From assembly GCF_029392895.1 (NCBI RefSeq), contig NZ_CP114200.1, forward strand, positions 711,501-775,500: 64,000 nt of DNA. The letters are read 5' to 3'. A model generated the notes under the pieces. The model was given only the letters and a program-made list of their open reading frames with translations, was not told the DNA's origin and ran no database searches. Of the stretch, positions 36,660-46,170 are shown piece by piece (position 1 is the stretch's first letter; the number at the start of each line of letters is the position of its first letter). Made by a program: the position numbers and the translations under genes. The DNA is from Streptomyces sp. 71268 (GTDB taxonomy: Bacteria > Actinomycetota > Actinomycetes > Streptomycetales > Streptomycetaceae).

Positions 36660-36708
36660 CACCGGCCGGCGTCCCCATTGGCGCGCGCCTCCACCGGCCG
36701 GCGTCCCC
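36660..36708. repeat. Short direct repeat, two 17-bp copies
   Basis: CACCGGCCGGCGTCCCC occurs at 36660-36676 and again at 36692-36708, 32 bp apart, just after the DeoR gene. It is within the 161-base convergent gap. Meaning unknown; possibly a duplication scar. Confidence 0.6.
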
Positions 36709-36814
36709 GGCGCGCACGGCGCACGCGGCTCAGGCGACCTGTGGGGGTATACGGGTCACGGCCCGGCCGCGTGACGCGCGGTCGCGGTGGAAGGGGCTCG
36801 GTCGGGGTGGTGGT

Positions 36815-37375
36815 TCAGCGGCTGGCGGCCTCGGCGGGGTGACGCTCCAGCGGCGGTCTGGGGTAGGCGCCCAGCGTCGCCGCCGCGGTCGGCCGATCAC
36901 CCTCCGGGCCGGTGCTGGGCGGGCCCAGCGGCACGGCCGCCCGTTGGGCCGAGCGCCGCGTCGGGCGCGGGTCGGCCTGGGCGGCGGGCAGCGTGAACCA
37001 CACGGTCTTGCCGCCGCCGTCGGCGGTGCCGCGCACGCCCCAGCTCTGGCTGAGCGCGGCGATCAGGGCGAGGCCGCGCCCGTGTGTGCCCAGTGGGTCG
37101 AGGGTGGGCGCCGCGGGCTCGCGCGTGTCGCGGTCGCGGACGGAGACGGTGAGCCCGTCGAGCGCCCACTCCAGGTCCACGGTGCAGCGCTTGTCGGGTT
37201 CGGCGTGCAGGTAGACGTTGGTCAACAGCTCGGAGACGCCGAGGACCGCCGACTCGATGAGCGCTTCCAAGTGCCAGTGGCGCAACTGCGCCGATACGAT
37301 CCTGCGGACCTGGCCGATCCGCTCCGGGAGAGCCTGGAGCTCCACGGTGCAATGCCTGCTCGGGCTGCTGATCAC
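36815..37375 (-). CDS. RsbW-like ATP-binding regulatory protein
   Basis: 186 residues. The HATPase_c_2 domain (about 1-130) has the N-box SELLTNVYLHAE and the G-box GTHGRGLALI. A disordered Pro/Arg-rich tail of about 50 residues follows. The GTG start at 37375 has GGGAG about 9 nt upstream. Streptomyces encode many such kinases, acting as anti-sigma factors or in undefined signalling. No STAS partner adjoins it. Confidence 0.88.
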   Translation of the reverse strand: MISSPSRHCTVELQALPERIGQVRRIVSAQLRHWHLEALIESAVLGVSELLTNVYLHAEPDKRCTVDLEWALDGLTVSVRDRDTREPAAPTLDPLGTHGRGLALIAALSQSWGVRGTADGGGKTVWFTLPAAQADPRPTRRSAQRAAVPLGPPSTGPEGDRPTAAATLGAYPRPPLERHPAEAASR

Positions 37376-37555
37376 GGCCGCAACTCCCTGGAAAAGTAGG
37401 GCTAGCCTGCATCAGGTGTGAGCGGGAGTGGGGCGCGCGGGACTACCCTCCGCGCCCGACCAGCGCGCTGGCTCGCAGCGTAACCACTGGTGAACTCTCG
37501 GTGACACCGATGCGCGTCCAGCGTCCCGCCATCGGCGCGACCGCGCAACTCGCGA

Positions 37556-37882
37556 TCAGCTCGTGCGGGGCTCGCCCTGCGCCGAGCGGATCACGTCCAG
37601 GAAGCGCCGCGCGGCGGCCGGACCGTCCGTGGCCCCCGACTCGCGCTGACCGAGCGTCAGCACGTACCGGGTCCCGTTGACGATGGCGCGCGCCTGGTCG
37701 CGGGCGGCGAACCAGGGCTTGCCCGCCTGCACCGAGCGCAGCGGAGCGCTGTCGATCTCGCTGCCGTAGCTGGTCAACAGCTTCAGTCTGCCGTCCTTGA
37801 TCAGCACCTGTCCGGCGCGGGTCACCGAGCGCAGCGAGCGCTCGATCCGTACCCCGGTCGCGTTGAACTCGGTATCCGCCAC
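37556..37882 (-). CDS. Conserved hypothetical protein, small
   Basis: 108 residues with regular beta-strand alternation ([41 protein letters not shown]). The GTG start has a strong GGGAGG about 8 nt upstream and gene-like composition, so it is very likely real. The pattern suggests a PH-like or small barrel fold. Function unknown; it is divergent from the Cds1-like gene. Confidence 0.75.
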
Positions 37883-38061
37883 GATTCACGCCTCCCCATC
37901 GCCCGGGCGCCCGCGCCCGCCGGCCATCCGCTCATCGGCATCGCCGTCACCCTACGTCCAAGGGGCAGTTTGCCTGCCGTACGAGCCGGGCACCAGAGCC
38001 GCTTTATGATCGAAATCGGGTCAGGTCCACCACCGGTCCCGGGAACAGCACGAGGAGTGGC

Positions 38062-39165
38062 ATGGACAGCACCGAGACGATCGACGTGGACCGCACCGAC
38101 CCGCACTACCGCGCCTGGCTGGGCGACGCCGTGCGCAAGGTCCAGGCCGATGCCAACCGTTCGGCCGACACCCATCTGCTGCGCTTCCCGCTGCCCGAGC
38201 GGTGGGGCATCGACCTCTACCTCAAGGACGAGTCCACGCACATCACGGGCAGCCTCAAGCACCGGCTGGCGCGGTCGCTGTTCCTGTACGGGCTGTGCAA
38301 CGGCTGGATCCGCCCGGGCAAGCCCGTCATCGAGGCGTCCAGCGGTTCGACGGCCGTCTCCGAGGCGTACTTCGCCAGCCTGATCGGGGTGCCGTTCATC
38401 GCCGTGATGCCGCGGACGACCAGTCGTGAGAAGTGCCGTCTGATCGAGTTCCACGGCGGCCGGTGCCACTTCGTGGACGACCCCCGGACGATGTACGCGG
38501 AGTCCGCCGCGCTCGCCACGGAAACCGGCGGGCACTACATGGACCAGTTCACCTACGCCGAACGGGCCACCGACTGGCGGGGCAACAACAACATCGCCGA
38601 GTCGATCTACCAGCAGCTTCGGCTGGAGCGCTACCCGGAGCCGAGCTGGATCGTGGCCACCGCCGGCACCGGCGGCACCTCGGCGACGATCGGCCGGTAC
38701 GTGCGCTACATGCAGCACCGCACGCTGGTGTGTGTCGCCGACCCGGAGAACTCGTGCTTCTTCGACGGCTGGGTCACCGGCGACCGGGACGCGCACGTCG
38801 AGCGGAGTTCACGGATCGAGGGCATCGGCCGCCCACGGATGGAGCCCAGCTTCGTGCCCGGCGCGATCGACCGGATGATGAAGGTGCCGGACGCGGCGAG
38901 CGTGGCGGCCGTGCGCGCCCTGGAGAAGGCCATCGGCCGCAAGGCGGGTGGCTCGACCGGCACCGGGCTGTGGAGCGCGCTGCGGATCGTCGCGGAGATG
39001 GTCGCGGACCAGCGCACCGGCAGCGTCGTCACCCTGCTGTGCGACCCGGGCGACCGCTACCTGGACAAGTACTACTCCGACGGCTGGCTCGCCGAGCAGG
39101 GCCTGGACATCACGCCGTACGCCGCCACCCTCGACCGCTTCCTGGCGGAGGGCGTCTGGCGGTGA
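38062..39165 (+). CDS. PLP-dependent cysteine synthase-fold enzyme, Cds1-like
   Basis: 367 residues of fold-type II PLP enzymes. PLP lysine is K66 (GSLKHRLA), the substrate loop is [10 protein letters not shown], and the glycine-rich phosphate cup is TAGTGGTS. The sequence resembles actinobacterial Cds1, an L-cysteine desulfhydrase that makes H2S, pyruvate and ammonia; cysteine synthase activity is the alternative. ATG at 38062 has GAGGAG 7 nt upstream. Its 3' end abuts the truncated end of a decayed ABC permease on the other strand, suggesting a deletion boundary there. Confidence 0.88.
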
Positions 39166-39199
39166 CGGCGCGCGCCACCCGGCGTGCGCTGTCACCCGC

Positions 39200-39434
39200 G
39201 CGGGCGCGAGGCCGGGGCTGAGCCCGGAGCCGCCGCCGCCGAACGCCGGGACGCTGACCGCGACGTCGCCGGCGAAGGTCCGCGACACGGTGTCGTCGAG
39301 GGTCGACTTCAGTGAGGCGGCGAAGACGGTGAACAGCGACACCACGCACACGCCGATCGTCAGCGCGGTGGCGGCCGTCCGCCTCGTTGGCCCGGCGACC
39401 TGGCCATCGGCAGGACGGCGCGGTCACCGCTCAT
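39200..39434 (-). pseudogene. Decayed MacB/FtsX-type ABC permease
   Basis: The start remains: ATG at 39434 overlaps the ATPase stop (ATGA) and gives [12 protein letters not shown] before the frame breaks after about 24 residues. In another frame, from about 39385, a clear permease fragment reads RTAATALTIGVCVVSLFTVF and continues to about 39205 (DVAVSVPAFGGGGSG). Such text normally lies at the start of the second FtsX half, several hundred residues in. The middle of the gene has been deleted, and its 3' end is lost next to the Cds1-like gene. Confidence 0.8.
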
Positions 39435-39885
39435 GGCGCCGCCCTCCCCCGGGCGCCCGTCCCGTGGTCGAGCGCTGCCAGCCGGTCGAGTACGCGCTCC
39501 GCGGTCGGCTCGGCCAGCCGGTCCACCAGGCGGCCGTCGGCCAGCATGACCACCTCGTCGGCGTGCGCGGCGGCGACCGGGTCGTGGGTGACCATGACGA
39601 CGGTACGTCCCATGGTGCGCACGGCCCGGCCGAGCAGCCCGAGGACCTCGTCGCCCGAGCGGGAGTCGAGGTTGCCGGTGGGTTCGTCGGGCCGGAGCCG
39701 GACGGGCCCATGATCGCGTTGAACCGCCCGACGGGGAAGCCGACGCTCACCCCGTCCAGGGCCCGCACCTCGGTCTCGCCCACCCCGTGGACCTTGACGG
39801 CGTCGCGGACGCGGGCGGCGCAGGCGGTGTCGTCGGCCGCGGCACGGTGCGCGGCGGCCGACGCGGCGGTGGGGAGGGTGTTCAC
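39431..39885 (-). pseudogene. Decayed ABC transporter ATPase with internal deletion
   Basis: GTG at 39885 has GGAG upstream and opens a normal lipoprotein-type ABC ATPase start ([20 protein letters not shown]). The Walker A reads GPSGSG, but the next bases jump straight to Walker B ([19 protein letters not shown]) in a different frame, near position 39690. Walker A lysine, Q-loop and signature are missing, about 110-120 codons. The rest, through the H-loop (VMVTHDP), is intact to the stop at 39431. The protein cannot be functional. It overlaps the SHOCT gene by 4 bp, so it was once a coupled operon. Confidence 0.85.
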
Positions 39886-40175
39886 GCCGTACCACTCCGG
39901 GGGCCGAACTCCTCGCTCAGGACGGAGAGTCGGCGCCAGTACTCGTCCTCGTCGATCTCCCCGGCGGCGAACCTGCGGCCGAGGATGGTCAGCGGCGAGT
40001 GCGCCCCGGGCGCGGCCGGCGCCGAGGCCCGGCCCCACGGCCCGCGGCCACGCCAGACGGTGCGCCGCACGAGGGCGACGCCGCCCCCGATGACCAGGGC
40101 CCAGACGAGGGGGAACAGCAGGATCCAGGGGCCGGGTCCCCCGCCGTCGCCCCAGCCGTGCGCGAGCGTGTTCAT
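39882..40175 (-). CDS. Small SHOCT-domain membrane protein
   Basis: 97 residues: a short start, one hydrophobic helix (about 17-37), a basic stretch and a C-terminal SHOCT motif ([22 protein letters not shown]). ATG at 40175 has AGGAG about 10 nt upstream. Its stop overlaps the start of the broken ABC ATPase (GTGA). SHOCT segments mediate oligomerisation. It may now be an orphan of the lost transporter. Confidence 0.82.
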
Positions 40176-40430
40176 CGTGATCGGACTCCTCGGTGGATGG
40201 GCTGTGCCTGTCACGACCGAGCCTGCTGCGCGGTGGCCCTCCCGTCGTCGTACGGTCAGCGGCACCTGACGTACCCCGTGGGGAGTACGCGTGCGGTGCA
40301 CGGCTACCGCGCCGGGTGACAAAGGGGTGATCCGGAGGGTCCGGGCCGGGGGCGTCGTGGCCTGAAGAGGGTGATCGCGGGCGGTCAGCGCGTTGTACGG
40401 TGAGTGTTCTGGCTTGAGGGGAGCGACGGC

Positions 40431-40736
40431 ATGGGCACGGAGATCGGGCTCGCGCGGGCCATCCGCGGACTGCGGGCGGAGTTGGCGGAGGCGATGGCCG
40501 ACGGCGAGGACGAGGCGATCAGGTTCCGTATCGAGTCCATCAGTCTCGATCTCCAGGTGGCCGTGGAGAACGCGCGCGAGGGACACGCGGGGCTCAGGTT
40601 CTGGGTCGTGTCGGCCGACGGTGGCGCCTCCTCGTCCACCGCCACCACCCACTCCCTGTCGTTGCAGCTCGCCGCCGAGATGGCCACCGGAGGTCACGTG
40701 CGGATCGCCGCCGCGCCCGAACGGCGGCCTGACTGA
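40431..40736 (+). CDS. Trypco2-family protein (trypsin co-occurring domain)
   Basis: 101 residues matching the Trypco2 pattern: an N-terminal helix ([17 protein letters not shown]), a beta-strand ([16 protein letters not shown]), then [25 protein letters not shown]. This small domain is known for sitting beside or fused to trypsin-like peptidases in proposed biological conflict systems. ATG at 40431 has GAGGGGAG about 8 nt upstream. The trypsin-STAND gene starts 2 bp after its stop, so the two form a coupled unit. It probably acts as adaptor or sensor; that is inference. Confidence 0.85.
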
Positions 40737-40738
40737 CG

Positions 40739-43700
40739 GTGGTTGGCGACGGCGATGGCGTGCGGGACCTGCCGGACCGGGCCGTCGAGGTGGTGCGGGT
40801 CAGCCGTACGGACGGCGGCGTGCACTACGGCGGCTCCGGCTTCCTGCTGACCGGCGAACTCGTGTTGACCGCCCGCCACGTGGTGGACGACGGGGCGTAC
40901 GCGTACCGCGTGTTGCGGCCCGCGCCACGTCGGGGCGCGGGCGCGGCCGAGGTCGAGTTGGTGGTGCCACACGGGGAACTCGACCTGGCGCTGCTGGTCC
41001 TGGACGAGGCGGTGGACGCGCTGGCGCCGATGCGCTTCGGGCGCCTGCCGCACGCGCTGGACACGGTGCCCTTCCACGCCATGGGCTTCCCCCGGTACGC
41101 GCGCGAGGACGGGCAGCCGCGGCGACGGCAGGCGACCGGCACCATCCAGCTCGCGTCCCGGCCGGACGCGGGCGGCCTCGACCTGTGGCACGAGAGCGCG
41201 CAGCCCGCGGACGTCCCGGGGGCCGGCTCGCCGTGGGAGGGGTTCTCCGGGGCGGCGGTGCTCGTCCCGCGCGGGCCCGGTCCGCGCGCGGAACACCTGG
41301 TCGTCGGCGTGTACGCCGCCCACCTCACCCCGGCCGGCGCCCGCTCCACCATCGCCACCCGCGTCGAATCGCTGGCCGACGCCGGCAAGTTCACCCGCTA
41401 CCTGCGCGCCCACGAGGTCACCCCGGAGCCGGTGGACGTCCCGCTGCCCGGTGGGGCGCCGCGCGGTCTGCCCAGCAACGTGCGCACCCACGAGAGCGTG
41501 TTGGCCAGGTTGCGCGGCACGCGCAGCTACCTGTTGCCCGAGCACCTGCCCTTCGTCAGCCCGGGCCCGGGCAGCGAGGCCGCGCCGCGCCGCCTCCTGG
41601 AGCGGCTGGTCGACTCCGAGCGGGGGCGCGGGGTGCTGCTGGTGGGCGCGGCGGGCACGGGCAAGACCCGTACCTGCTTCGAGGTGGCCCAGGCGGCGCA
41701 CGACGACGGCTGGCACGTCCTGCACGTACGCACCGACCGGCAGCGCTCGCTGACCGTGGCCCACCTCGAACAGGCCGTCTTCGACGCCGGCCGGTCGCGG
41801 GTGCTGCTGGTGCTGGACTACCTCGACACGTGCGCGCAGCTCGATCTCGGCGCGCTCGCCGACGAGTTCATGCTCGGCGCGGCCGAGCGCGGCATCCGGG
41901 TCGCCTGCGTGGCGTCGACCCGCCCCGGCACGCTGCCCGTACTGCGCAAGCGCGGCGTACGCCAGCACTTCGACGAGGTGGCGCTGCGTCAGGACAGCGG
42001 TCACCAGGGTGCCGTGATCGACGCGATGCTGCCGGTGGTCGCCCCGCACGCCCTCGACGGCCTGGGGCGGGCCGCGCTGCGGGCGGCGTGCGGCAACCGG
42101 CCGATCATCGCGCTCCTGGTCGCCGCCCAGATCGAGCGCCGCTACCTGGCCCGCCAGGACCTCCCGCACCTGACCGGCTGGCGCAGCGACGACCTGCTGG
42201 CCTGGCTCGACCCCCGGCTCCAGGAGGACCGGCTGCGGCCCCCGGAGGCCACCGACTGGGACGCCGACGCGGACGGCGGCGCCCCGCGTCCGCCCAGCGA
42301 CCGGCAACTGGCCGCGACCGTGGCCGCCTACGCCTGCCCGCAGCCACGGGACGCCGTCGTCGCCACGGTGGACGCCTTCCTCGAAGGCCGGGACAGCGGG
42401 CTCGACGGCGAGTACGTCGTGCGCAGCCTGACCGAACTCGGCTGGCTTGAGGAGCCGCACGAGGACCAACTCATGGTGGTCCACGACATCGTCACCGACG
42501 AACTCGTACGGCAACTGCTGCTGCCCGCGGGGCCGGTGCACCCGGACTCGCTGCACGCCGTGTTCTCCACCTCGCTGACCAGCGCCCGCACCTTCGGTGG
42601 CTTCGCCGGCCACCTGGCGCGGCTGGCCGCCGACCTCGACGACGCGGACGGCCGCCAGGTGGCCCGCCTTGGCGGCGAGTGGCTGCGGGCCGCCGCGCCC
42701 CGCGTCGGCGCGCTGCTCAAGCGGGCCGGCGAGGACGGCCGGCAGGCGCTGCTCACGCTGCTCAGCCGGCGCCCCTGGCAGGCGTCGGTGGACGGGGTCT
42801 GGGACGAGGTGGCGCAGCCGTGGCTGGTGCGCGAGAAGGACTCGCCCACCGCGCGGACCCTGCTGGCCCAGGCCGTGGAGTCGGCCAGCGGACCGGTGCC
42901 GGAGCGGCTGGTCGAGGCGGCTCTGACCTGGCTGTACCGGGGCGGGCCCGAGGCGGAGACCTCGCACCACGTGATCCACGCCCTGCTGGAGCGCCGCGAT
43001 CTGAGCGCGCGGGACGAGGTACGCGTCACGGACTACGCGCTGGCCTGGCTGGGGCTGTGGAAGCGGCACCGCTCGGCCCGGTTCGTGATCGGCGCGCTGC
43101 TGCGCGAGGACCGGGCCCTGGACACGCGGCGGCTGACGGCGGCCGTCCAGTACGCCTTCAGTTGGCTGCACGTACACGCCACCACGGACGCCGCCCACGT
43201 GCTGCACCGGCTGCTGGCGCGCGCGGACGTGGACCGTGCCGTCGCGCGGCGGACCGTGTCGGCGGCACTGACCTGGATCGGACACGGCCACGGCACGCAA
43301 CGCGTCGCCAGCCTCGTGCTGGCCCCACTGGCCGCCCATCCGGAACTCAGCCGCCAGCAGCAGAAGCAGACCGCCGGGCTCGCGCTGACCTGGCTGGCGC
43401 ACAACGAGGCGGAGCCGGTGGCCCGGTTCGTGCTGCGGGCGCTGCTGCGCCGCGGCGACCTGGCCGCGTTGCGCGCGGGGCGCGCCGTGGACCAGGCCGT
43501 GCTCTGGCTCCGGCACGGGCACGCCGCCACGCTCGCGGCGGCCCAGGTGTTCGGACCCCTGCTGCCGCACCCCGCCCTGGCCGGCGAGCAGCGCGCCCTG
43601 GTGGTCGAGATGGCGTGGGAGTGGGTGGGCGGTTACGGCGACTCGCTCGCCGCGGGGGACGTGCTGGGCTCCCTGTTGGCCGACGCCGCCGGTCTGGGCG

Positions 43701-45808
43701 AGCGCGCGGCCGACCTGGCCGAGCGCGCGCTGGCCTGGGCACAGGCCCACCCGCGGGCGCCGGAGGCCCCGGCGGTGCTGAGCGCGCTGCTCGGCGGCGC
43801 GGCCCCGGGCGACCGGCTGCACCGCAGCGCCGACTTCGCCCTGCACTGGCTTGAGTCGTACGGCGCCGAGGCCGACGGCGCCGCCGTGCACCGGGCCGCC
43901 CTCGCCTGTCGGGAGATGCGCCGCGACCAGGTCCGCCGCGCCGCCGACGCGGCCCTGGACTGGCTGCGGGCGCACACGCCGGCGCGGCCACCCGACGATC
44001 TCGATGTCGGCGCGCCCCCGGTGGGGGCGGCGTGCTCGGCCGCGACGCCGGCCGCCGGGCCCGAGGGAGACACGGCGGATCTGTGCGCGGAAGTCGGGCT
44101 AAAAGGAGCGGAGTTGGGAGGCGACGAGTCGGCCGAGGGGCTGGCGCATGGCGGGCTGGTGGACGAGGTGGGGGTGACGCTGCGCCTGTTGCTGGGCACG
44201 CCCGAGCTGCTCCCGGCGCAGGAGGCGCGCGCGCTGGAGCACGCGGCGGACTGGCTCGGCCTCCCCCGGCGCCACCGCGACCGCGGGTACCTGTGGCTGC
44301 GGGTGTTGCGGGCGCGCGGCTGGAGCGGCGGCAACCGTGGCTGGCCCCAGGGCAACGGGCCGCTGCCCGCGCCGGACCTGAGCGACCTCGCCGCGCTGCT
44401 GGGCCAACCGGACCTGACGGCGGCCGAGGCGACCCACCTGGCCGACCGGGCACTGGCCCTGAGCGCCGAGGAGGGCGCGCCCATCCGCGCGGTGCGCGCC
44501 GCCGTCGCCGCCGTGCTGCGCCTGCCGCGGCTCACCGCGCGGCAGGAGGCGGGCGCCGTGGAGCTGGCGACCCGTCTGGTGGCGGCGGAGCCCTCCGGCG
44601 GGACGCTGGACCCGCTGCTCGCGCTGCTCGACCGCCCGCTGGAGGAGGCCGCCCACGCGCGGGCGACGGCCCTCGGGTTCGGCTGGCTGGCCGCGTGTGA
44701 GCGGCTCGCCGACGCGCCCCGGGCGCTGTTCGCGCTCGCCGGGCGGCCGGGGCTGGCCGATGACCAGCGGCGCGCGCTCAACGCCCACGCGCTGAACTGG
44801 TACGCGGTCAACTCCGAGCACCCGTGGGCCCCGGAGGTCCGCGCCTTCCTCACCGATCACGGGGACGACGGTTTCGGCGCCTGGTTACGCGGTGTGGAGG
44901 AGACCCGGGCCTGGTTGCTGGCGCACCCGGACGACCCGGAGCGCGGCGCGGTGCTGCTGCGCCTGCTGGCACGGCCCGACGAGGCCCACCCCGCCGCCGC
45001 GCCGCCCGCCCGGCCCGGGGGTGCGAGCGACGCGGCGCGGGGCCCCGGCGATGGGCCGCCGGGCGGCGGGGCACTGGACCGGCGCCTCATGCTGTCCGCC
45101 GTGCACGCCGCGCTGGCCACCGTGTTGAGCTGGCGGGACTTCGTCGCGCTGCTGGAGAACGAGGACCTGCGGCCCGAGCAGCGGCGAGCGGTGGCCGGAC
45201 AGGCGCTGGCCTACCTGCGGTCGCCGGCAGCGGTCAAGACCCGGCTGGTGATCATCGCGCTGCTACGCACCGCGGACCTCACCGCCGAGCAGCGGTGGGA
45301 CGCGGCCGAGGAGGCGTTCGCGCTGCTGACCCGGACCAGCGGCCGGACGTTCAAGACCCGCCCGGTGCTGCTGGCCCTGCTGCGCCACCGGGAGCTGGCC
45401 CACGAGCACGAACAGGCCGCGATCGAACGGGCCCTGCGGCAGGTCGACGGGGCCGAGACCAGCGAGGCCAAGCCACTGCTGCGGCTGGTGCTGGGCAAGC
45501 GGCTGACCGGTGAGCAGGCGGCGCGCGCCATCGGCCACGGCCTGGACTGGCTACTGGGGCGCGAGCCGACGGGCGGCGTCGGCTCGGTGGTGGAGGCGCT
45601 GCTCGGACGCGCGGAGTGCTCCCCTGACCAGCGGCGGCACGCCGTCGCGTACGCCCGGCGCTGGCTCGCGGCCAATCCGGAGCACACCGTGGCCGAGCGC
45701 GTCGCCGCGCACCTGGCCGCCCACCCCGAGGAACCGTGCCCCGCCCCGGGCCCGCAGCGCACGGCGCCGGCACCAGCACCGGACGCGGTCTCCCCGACCG
45801 GCGGCTGA
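40739..45808 (+). CDS. Trypsin-like peptidase / STAND NTPase / helical-repeat protein
   Basis: 1689 residues. The trypsin-like domain (about 10-225) has the complete triad: H47 (LTARHVV), D82 (LDLALL) and S170 (EGFSGAAV). An NTPase module (about 245-600) carries Walker A VGAAGTGKT (K309), Walker B VLLVLDYLD (D360) and a VASTRPG sensor strand, as in STAND/NACHT proteins. From about 650 to 1660 lie roughly 20 helical repeats of about 36-40 residues with an AL-x-WL and VL-x2-LL-x-R-x-DL pattern. A disordered insert occurs near 1080-1130. There is no signal peptide, so it is cytoplasmic. The GTG start lacks a good ribosome-binding site and probably depends on coupling to the Trypco2 gene. The architecture fits a sensor-switch-effector protein of phage defence or self-killing: repeats sense, NTPase switches, protease cuts. 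Confidence 0.9.
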   Translation: MVGDGDGVRDLPDRAVEVVRVSRTDGGVHYGGSGFLLTGELVLTARHVVDDGAYAYRVLRPAPRRGAGAAEVELVVPHGELDLALLVLDEAVDALAPMRFGRLPHALDTVPFHAMGFPRYAREDGQPRRRQATGTIQLASRPDAGGLDLWHESAQPADVPGAGSPWEGFSGAAVLVPRGPGPRAEHLVVGVYAAHLTPAGARSTIATRVESLADAGKFTRYLRAHEVTPEPVDVPLPGGAPRGLPSNVRTHESVLARLRGTRSYLLPEHLPFVSPGPGSEAAPRRLLERLVDSERGRGVLLVGAAGTGKTRTCFEVAQAAHDDGWHVLHVRTDRQRSLTVAHLEQAVFDAGRSRVLLVLDYLDTCAQLDLGALADEFMLGAAERGIRVACVASTRPGTLPVLRKRGVRQHFDEVALRQDSGHQGAVIDAMLPVVAPHALDGLGRAALRAACGNRPIIALLVAAQIERRYLARQDLPHLTGWRSDDLLAWLDPRLQEDRLRPPEATDWDADADGGAPRPPSDRQLAATVAAYACPQPRDAVVATVDAFLEGRDSGLDGEYVVRSLTELGWLEEPHEDQLMVVHDIVTDELVRQLLLPAGPVHPDSLHAVFSTSLTSARTFGGFAGHLARLAADLDDADGRQVARLGGEWLRAAAPRVGALLKRAGEDGRQALLTLLSRRPWQASVDGVWDEVAQPWLVREKDSPTARTLLAQAVESASGPVPERLVEAALTWLYRGGPEAETSHHVIHALLERRDLSARDEVRVTDYALAWLGLWKRHRSARFVIGALLREDRALDTRRLTAAVQYAFSWLHVHATTDAAHVLHRLLARADVDRAVARRTVSAALTWIGHGHGTQRVASLVLAPLAAHPELSRQQQKQTAGLALTWLAHNEAEPVARFVLRALLRRGDLAALRAGRAVDQAVLWLRHGHAATLAAAQVFGPLLPHPALAGEQRALVVEMAWEWVGGYGDSLAAGDVLGSLLADAAGLGERAADLAERALAWAQAHPRAPEAPAVLSALLGGAAPGDRLHRSADFALHWLESYGAEADGAAVHRAALACREMRRDQVRRAADAALDWLRAHTPARPPDDLDVGAPPVGAACSAATPAAGPEGDTADLCAEVGLKGAELGGDESAEGLAHGGLVDEVGVTLRLLLGTPELLPAQEARALEHAADWLGLPRRHRDRGYLWLRVLRARGWSGGNRGWPQGNGPLPAPDLSDLAALLGQPDLTAAEATHLADRALALSAEEGAPIRAVRAAVAAVLRLPRLTARQEAGAVELATRLVAAEPSGGTLDPLLALLDRPLEEAAHARATALGFGWLAACERLADAPRALFALAGRPGLADDQRRALNAHALNWYAVNSEHPWAPEVRAFLTDHGDDGFGAWLRGVEETRAWLLAHPDDPERGAVLLRLLARPDEAHPAAAPPARPGGASDAARGPGDGPPGGGALDRRLMLSAVHAALATVLSWRDFVALLENEDLRPEQRRAVAGQALAYLRSPAAVKTRLVIIALLRTADLTAEQRWDAAEEAFALLTRTSGRTFKTRPVLLALLRHRELAHEHEQAAIERALRQVDGAETSEAKPLLRLVLGKRLTGEQAARAIGHGLDWLLGREPTGGVGSVVEALLGRAECSPDQRRHAVAYARRWLAANPEHTVAERVAAHLAAHPEEPCPAPGPQRTAPAPAPDAVSPTGG

Positions 45809-46170
45809 CTCCCCCTCACCCGCGATCGCTCCGGCCGGCGGCTGTCGCCCACGCCGGCAACCACTCCGACTGGACACCGGCCATGACCGGGCCACCTGGC
45901 GCACGCCGGCTCGCTGGTACGCCGACACGGCACAACCCGGCGCGCCTCCACGCTGGTACGCCGACACGGCACCACCCGGCGCGCCTCCACGCTGGTACGC
46001 CGACACGGCACCACCCGGCGCGCCTCCGCGCTGGTACGCCGACACGAGCCAGCCGGGCCGGCCGTGCCCGCCGGCGTACGACCCACGTCGCGCCCCGCAA
46101 CCGCGCACCCGGCGTGCGCGGGCGCCCGACGCGCGGCACCGAGTGGCGGCACCCGCCCGTGGTGGTCGCC
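45809..46170. other. Gap between peptidase-NTPase gene and ROK regulator
   Basis: 362 bases between the two convergent genes. Apart from the 39-bp tandem array there is no gene-like frame with a ribosome-binding site. No classic terminator hairpin was found. Confidence 0.6.
45912..46063. repeat. 39-bp tandem repeat, about 3.8 copies
   Basis: Units start at 45912, 45951, 45990 and 46029, each beginning CGCTGGTACGCCGACACG. The first three differ by one base from copy to copy; the fourth diverges after 20 bases. 39 is divisible by 3, so rightward frames give 13-residue peptides (RWYADTAxPGAPP in one frame). None has a convincing start or ribosome-binding site. No spacers are present, so it is not CRISPR. 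Confidence 0.85.

What the first reader, a model, noticed from the sequence alone, without database searches (positions are those of the whole stretch)
40431..45808. Trypco2 plus trypsin-STAND-repeat pair: candidate conflict/defence system
Seen: a 101-residue Trypco2 protein 2 bp upstream of a 1689-residue protein joining a complete trypsin triad (H47, D82, S170), a P-loop NTPase (K309, D360) and about 20 helical repeats of 36-40 residues. Known: trypsin-like peptidases with STAND modules and small co-occurring domains are proposed NTP-dependent conflict systems in multicellular bacteria. Inference: the repeats recognise an invader product, the NTPase oligomerises and the peptidase is freed to cleave a host or phage protein. 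The repeat tail with a conserved Trp-Leu step is not one I can name.
Basis: partly seen in the sequence, partly recalled or inferred. Interest (0 to 1): 0.9.

Follow-up and report, generated by a model that had tools for sequence, protein, structure and literature searches.

The report
Protease-armed bacterial receptor with dedicated partner
This Streptomyces gene pair looks like an intracellular alarm protein (a protease joined to a molecular switch and a long repeat tail that probably senses invaders) plus a small partner protein that belongs to the protease, and the same switch-and-tail body is found elsewhere carrying other weapons.

Summary
The 101-aa protein is Trypco2 (87.6 bits). The 1689-aa protein has an intact trypsin triad, a P-loop NTPase and 18 HMM-detected helical repeats; the unit is 38 residues and matched no Pfam family. 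One correction: the large gene probably starts at GTG 40760, a 23-nt gap.

Trypco2 is tied to the peptidase. In 49 of 62 Streptomyces Trypco2 places a trypsin domain begins within 300 nt downstream. Of 28 loci with the window's NTPase-repeat body, 21 of 23 trypsin versions have Trypco2 upstream, two have Trypco1, and five of five caspase versions have EACC1. Trypco2 distances follow the trypsin domain (partial rank correlation 0.74) more than the NTPase (0.23). Of 120 database proteins with the repeats, 33 carry a PD-(D/E)xK-like nuclease instead. Some arrays are nearly identical internally.

Best reading: an NLR-like receptor; repeats sense, the STAND NTPase assembles, the peptidase fires, and Trypco2 is its dedicated gate or substrate. 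Defence, target and Trypco2's action are inferred. The kind is known (Kaur 2020; AVAST-like); the partner-follows-peptidase swap and the 38-residue arrays are new here.

The parts
40431..40736 (+). Trypco2 gene, 101 aa; predicted N-terminal helix (4-24) and five strands
   Evidence: Pfam PF19631 87.6 bits; AF2 pLDDT 72; dN/dS 0.20-0.22
40739..45808 (+). trypsin-STAND-repeat gene, 1689 aa as given; probable start GTG 40760 (1682 aa)
40832..41263 (+). trypsin-like peptidase core (residues 32-175), triad H47/D82/S170
41594..41839 (+). core of the STAND-type P-loop NTPase (Pfam match residues 286-367; K309, D360)
   Evidence: PF25199 31.8 bits, under cut-off 34; K309 and D360 in 46 of 46
42407..42520 (+). 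winged-helix-like element (residues 557-594)
   Evidence: helix-strand-strand-helix in AF2 model; naming is inference
42845..45715 (+). array of 38-residue two-helix repeats (about residues 703-1659); the model has low confidence at 1084-1139
   Evidence: repeat HMM, 18 hits from 633 to 1659; AF2 helix pairs to residue 1192; residues past 1200 not modelled
45912..46046 (.). 39-bp tandem repeat just downstream; relation to the pair unknown
   Evidence: 3.5 copies, 97% matches

Best explanation
The pair is an NLR-like, protease-armed two-gene conflict system. SHOWN: a trypsin-like peptidase with intact triad, a STAND-type P-loop NTPase with intact Walker residues and a long 38-residue-repeat helical array in one chain; a small upstream partner (Trypco2) that keeps company with, and evolves with, the peptidase rather than the NTPase; exchange of the peptidase for a caspase or a nuclease on the same body. 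INFERRED: the repeat array binds an invader-derived or invader-altered ligand; binding lets the NTPase exchange nucleotide and assemble; assembly activates the trypsin domains; Trypco2 sits on its own peptidase as a dedicated gate (holding it off, and released or cut on activation); the freed peptidase cleaves proteins so that the infected hyphal compartment stops growing or dies.
For: Unbiased pairing: 49 of 62 Trypco2 places have a trypsin domain starting within 300 nt downstream. Partner follows peptidase: of 28 loci of this NTPase clade, 21 of 23 trypsin loci have Trypco2, 2 have Trypco1 and 5 of 5 caspase loci have EACC1 (EACC1 by Pfam in 4, the fifth read by eye); trypsin versus caspase against Trypco2 presence, Fisher p 2e-4, loci not independent. 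The NTPase tree needs 4 trypsin/caspase changes, at least 3 forced by starred branches. Distance correlation in 16 non-redundant clade loci: Trypco2-trypsin 0.82, partial 0.74, reached in 0 of 5000 permutations; Trypco2-NTPase 0.58, partial 0.23, reached in 488 of 5000. In 51 non-redundant loci of mixed NTPase types: partial 0.47 (0 of 2000) versus 0.07 (229 of 2000). N-termini of 120 listed repeat proteins: 54 trypsin, 16 caspase, 33 PD-(D/E)xK-like nuclease, 9 unclassed, 5 short, 3 without NTPase match. Patchy: the NTPase clade is in 26 of 295 Streptomyces genomes. Near-identical arrays in some members, e.g. eight 111-bp copies at 94% in L161. No third gene family found across unrelated loci. 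Precedent for oligomerisation-driven fused trypsins in AVAST and Hachiman (PMC12799240, passages).
Against: No functional datum of any kind. No defence island: ten neighbours examined are metabolic, regulatory or transport genes, one without a Pfam hit. The pair sits at the same place in S. buecherae and S. zagrosensis, i.e. inherited in this group rather than freshly acquired. No plasmid or phage copy found. The window's own array is old and diverse (16 units, mean identity 28%), without the turnover seen in relatives. PF25199 is below its cut-off. 13 of 62 Trypco2 places have no trypsin within 2.5 kb on the same strand, two of them beside VMAP-EAD2 proteins, so Trypco2 is not strictly a trypsin partner.
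Confidence: 0.55

Rival explanations
1. Trypco2 is the peptidase's substrate: a small pro-effector released by cleavage, standing where the pro-nuclease (Avs1a, HamM) stands in AVAST type 1 and Hachiman, upstream of the fused trypsin.
For: Same gene order as the pro-nuclease-trypsin pairs (PMC12799240, passages); co-evolution with the peptidase; no third gene family across loci that could be the substrate.
Confidence: 0.27
2. A regulated protease for the host's own programme (development, stress, protein quality) rather than defence, with the repeats reading a host signal.
For: Conserved chromosomal position in related species; ordinary neighbours; HtrA/Deg-like peptidase fold; nine Trypco2-trypsin loci of other NTPase types share one chromosomal site beside a gene I read as clpC (name by eye).
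Against: Patchy occurrence (26 of 295 genomes), effector exchange including a nuclease, and array turnover in some relatives are more typical of conflict systems.
Confidence: 0.25
3. Trypco2 is only a folding helper or neutral operon companion of the peptidase, with no regulatory role.
For: Small, upstream, close to or overlapping the peptidase gene in many loci; purifying selection.
Against: Exchange for unrelated Trypco1 or EACC1 with the peptidase type argues for a peptidase-specific activity.
Confidence: 0.12

Closest known systems
Trypco2/trypsin modules of VMAP (MoxR-vWA) ternary conflict systems (Kaur et al. 2020, PMC7159879, passages read)
   Same: Trypco1 or Trypco2 as mutually exclusive neighbours of a trypsin-like peptidase; multicellular actinobacteria; NTPase-linked.
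   Different: No MoxR, vWA or VMAP domain found here; the peptidase is fused to a STAND NTPase and a 38-residue repeat array instead. In our sample 2 of the 40 proteins scanned had VMAP-C, whereas 21 had NACHT and 14 nSTAND_NTPase5.
EACC1-caspase two-gene systems (Kaur et al. 2020)
   Same: 5' small constant component plus 3' peptidase with variable C-terminus; five caspase relatives share this very NTPase-repeat body.
   Different: The window has Trypco2 and trypsin; the partner is predicted soluble, EACC1 is described as a one-TM protein.
AVAST type 1 (Avs1a/Avs1b)
   Same: Upstream partner plus trypsin fused to STAND NTPase and repeats.
   Different: Avs1b model matches only the trypsin part (NCBIfam 18.5 bits, cut-off 1500); upstream gene is Trypco2, not an MBL-fold pro-nuclease.
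Fungal NLRs with highly internally conserved repeats (Dyrka et al. 2014, PMC4986451, passages read)
   Same: Effector-NTPase-repeat order, exchangeable N-terminal effectors, some arrays nearly identical internally and variable in copy number.
   Different: Repeat type (38-residue two-helix unit without a Pfam family) and effectors; the window's own array is diverged.
SAMD9-family STAND-like NTPases (PMC5445408, passages read) and STAND-TPR protein 6mfv
   Same: Long-span Foldseek matches of the NTPase-helical-repeat part: 9zjs 839 columns, E 1.3e-5; 6mfv 868 columns, E 3.3e-5.
   Different: TM-scores are low (0.22 and 0.17 by query) and rmsd high, so only a general arrangement; different N-terminal domains.

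Membership tests
Trypco2 (PF19631) | profile match above curated cut-off | tested here: met
   87.6 bits against 24.2, residues 5-81
Trypco2 (PF19631) | neighbour of a trypsin-like peptidase | tested here: met
   window pair; 49 of 62 places in the Streptomyces sample
trypsin-like (S1) peptidase | His-Asp-Ser triad and fold | tested here: met
trypsin-like (S1) peptidase | proteolytic activity | not testable with these tools
   needs protein
STAND NTPase (nSTAND_NTPase5) | profile above curated cut-off | tested here: inconclusive
   31.8 bits against 34; the database's precomputed list gives PF25199.2 for the same protein (P0003)
STAND NTPase (nSTAND_NTPase5) | Walker A and B residues | tested here: met
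   K309 and D360 in 46 of 46
STAND NTPase (nSTAND_NTPase5) | ligand-triggered oligomerisation | not testable with these tools
   needs protein
VMAP/MoxR-vWA ternary system | VMAP, MoxR and vWA components | tested here: not met
   no VMAP hit in the protein; none among ten neighbours scanned
AVAST type 1 | full-length Avs1b profile and upstream MBL nuclease | tested here: not met
   18.5 bits against 1500, residues 28-176 only; upstream gene is Trypco2
EACC1-caspase system | EACC1 gene and caspase domain | tested here: not met
   window has Trypco2 and trypsin; relatives with the same body do have them
TPR or other known helical repeat | profile match of the repeat tail | tested here: inconclusive
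   no TPR or HEAT family listed at E up to 1; the tail was not modelled and searched alone
anti-phage defence system | protects against phage | not testable with these tools
   no experiment; PADLOC gives only partial trypsin-part matches

The most novel reading that the evidence does not exclude
This body (nSTAND5-like NTPase plus 38-residue arrays) is a bacterial receptor chassis on which weapons are swapped as cassettes, and every protease cassette brings its own unrelated gatekeeper: Trypco2 or Trypco1 for trypsin, EACC1 for caspase. The small proteins are then convergent, peptidase-specific safety catches, and the repeat arrays, some near-identical and variable in length, are a fast-changing recognition surface like that of fungal NLRs.
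Probability: 0.35. Interest if true: 0.8.

Novelty: new variant of a known kind. Interest (0 to 1): 0.57.

Why it matters
Trypco1, Trypco2 and EACC1 were named for their company; their job is unknown in the passages I read. The same NTPase-repeat body with exchanged peptidases isolates the question: the partner changes with the peptidase, so the peptidase is what it serves. That turns 'what is Trypco2 for' into a direct test (delete it, or swap peptidase and partner together or apart). It also offers a named, searchable 38-residue repeat family as the likely sensor of a group of bacterial NLR-like proteins, some with arrays that look recently amplified.

Tried and rejected
Genome-wide searches with the full 1689-aa protein gave no answer; shorter NTPase queries worked. 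A phylum search (296 genomes) for the nuclease version matched only the window's own NTPase, so the neighbourhoods of nuclease versions remain unknown and 'nuclease versions need no partner' was not tested. Plasmid and phage collections: no match. Trypco1-Trypco2 homology: hhalign probability 0.3%. Trypco2 fold: nothing convincing in the PDB. PDB sequence search with P0009 for the repeats: only weak P-loop matches, E 0.28 or worse; in VIA-align the trypsin domain filled the list, so the repeat fold was not tested alone. A defence-island reading was dropped. A cis-encoded third component was looked for in 51 loci (511 ORFs by a home-made GC3 gene finder): of the 20 families listed, several of the largest come from one shared site, and I saw no candidate effector. 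Nuclease count: my first pattern (34) wrongly took in P0058 and P0089, which are trypsin versions; rebuilt without them it is 33. In one search the histidine column of the 60-locus set was off by one; corrected (His, Asp, Ser each 60 of 60). The trees are 'quick' or FastTree, with long-branch warnings. The 60-of-63 pairing figure is biased by how loci were chosen; 49 of 62 is used instead. Of about 72 Trypco2 places, ten were not fetched.

Full report

The repeat. In relatives P0009 and P0011 the unit recurs every 38 residues almost without exception. A self-built HMM finds 18 copies in the window protein and 10-37 in each of the 35 homologues searched. Pfam lists no TPR or HEAT family for the window protein at E up to 1. 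A search with the array of P0011 gave 242 proteins at E up to 1e-10, the best 120 listed; named sources include Micromonospora, Nonomuraea, Catellatospora, Saccharothrix, Catenulispora and Rhodospira besides Streptomyces. Within-array identity is 28% in the window (16 units) but 50% or more in 5 of the 62 proteins tabulated (L161 75%, P0009 64%, P0011 54%, P0012 52%, L049 50%); in L161 eight 111-bp copies agree at 94%. I read this as recent amplification in some lineages. The window's array is not of that sort.

Weapons on one body. Of the 120 listed repeat proteins, 54 have a trypsin N-terminus, 16 a caspase, 33 a PD-(D/E)xK-like nuclease (conserved D-G-x-I-D and E-C-K; my reading, with Pfam giving only a weak Mrr_cat match at E 0.14 for one of three scanned), 9 are unclassed, 5 have under 60 residues before the NTPase and 3 have no NTPase match. 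On a quick tree of 63 NTPase domains (46 trypsin, 14 caspase, 3 other) the trypsin/caspase label needs four changes, at least three forced by starred branches; several long branches meet, so details are unsure.

The partner follows the peptidase. A 213-residue NTPase query found 27 places in 26 of 295 Streptomyces genomes (E up to 1e-8). With S. zagrosensis added there are 28 loci; the S. philanthi locus was left out because it lacks the NTPase. Twenty-three have trypsin: 21 with Trypco2 directly upstream, two (L148, L162) with Trypco1. Five have caspase: all five with EACC1 (four by Pfam, the fifth read by eye) and none with Trypco2. Independently of the NTPase, 62 of about 72 Trypco2 places from 61 Streptomyces genomes were examined: 49 have a trypsin domain beginning within 300 nt downstream, 13 do not. 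All 60 Trypco2-linked trypsins aligned keep the triad. In 30 Trypco1 loci of about 3 kb, none held a Trypco2 and 20 held a same-strand trypsin. In the 16 non-redundant clade loci Trypco2 distances correlate with trypsin distances at 0.82 and with NTPase distances at 0.58; partial values are 0.74 (0 of 5000 permutations as high) and 0.23 (488 of 5000). Over 51 loci with mixed NTPase types the partial values are 0.47 and 0.07, the latter weakened by poor alignability of unlike NTPases.

Surroundings and history. The ten neighbouring genes scanned are ordinary (PLP enzyme, SHOCT protein, ROK, MFS, acetyltransferase, regulators and so on; one has no Pfam hit). The pair lies at the same place in S. 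buecherae and S. zagrosensis, and S. philanthi has lost Trypco2 and the first half of the big gene through a deletion. dN/dS is 0.20-0.22 for Trypco2, 0.09-0.17 for residues 236-470, 0.27-0.40 for the peptidase and 0.27-0.65 for the repeat segments. The same genome has a second Trypco2 gene at 7.025 Mb, upstream of a 1563-residue trypsin (23.7 bits, under cut-off) / nSTAND_NTPase5 / TPR protein, and one copy only of the window's big protein.

How it most likely works. Sensor (repeat array), switch (STAND NTPase), weapon (trypsin) in one chain, as in NLRs; this order is shown, the mechanics are inferred from AVAST, Hachiman and NLR precedents (PMC12799240 and PMC4986451, passages). The partner data say that Trypco2 acts with the peptidase. 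Two readings remain: a gate that holds the peptidase until the switch assembles, or the peptidase's substrate, as the pro-nuclease is in AVAST type 1 and Hachiman. I favour the gate slightly, because Trypco2 is a small domain without a recognisable effector fold and is replaced by unrelated small proteins, but the substrate reading is close behind. The wider claim, conflict rather than housekeeping, rests on patchiness, weapon exchange and array turnover in relatives; the quiet chromosomal setting speaks against it.

Known or new. Trypco1/2 and trypsin pairing, their mutual exclusivity and EACC1-caspase pairing are in Kaur et al. 2020 (PMC7159879, passages), there described for VMAP and EACC1 systems. 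The word Trypco2 occurs in two papers of the library searched. In the passages read and searches made I saw no account of a STAND body on which peptidase and partner change together, nor of this 38-residue repeat; supplements were not read and subscription papers are not held. I file it as a new variant of a known kind.

Noticed in passing
L041, L043, L044, L056, L061, L064, L067, L071, L074: Nine Trypco2-trypsin loci share one chromosomal site, convergent with a gene I read by eye as clpC, with an lsr2-like gene in eight of them beyond it.
   Followed up: partly
L006 (S. philanthi), window equivalents about 36689-43108: Deletion of about 6.4 kb has removed Trypco2, the peptidase and the NTPase, leaving a repeat-tail remnant.
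   Followed up: partly
L158 and L163: The reading frame is broken in or before the repeat array: in L158 repeats run on in other frames (4, 11 and 10 copies), in L163 the first frame ends after 460 residues. Real change or assembly error unknown.
   Followed up: no
window 45912-46046: 39-bp tandem repeat, 3.5 copies, 97% matches, just downstream of the pair.
   Followed up: no
L040, L055, L062, L063, L077, L081: Trypco2 proteins without a trypsin neighbour that share Gly in place of Trp58, a possible separate subfamily.
   Followed up: partly
L007 (own genome, 7.025 Mb): Second Trypco2-trypsin-STAND system in the same genome, with TPRs in place of the 38-residue repeats.
   Followed up: partly
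P0039, P0043, P0082 and 30 others: Nuclease-armed versions of the same body, mostly from metagenomes; neighbourhoods unseen.
   Followed up: partly
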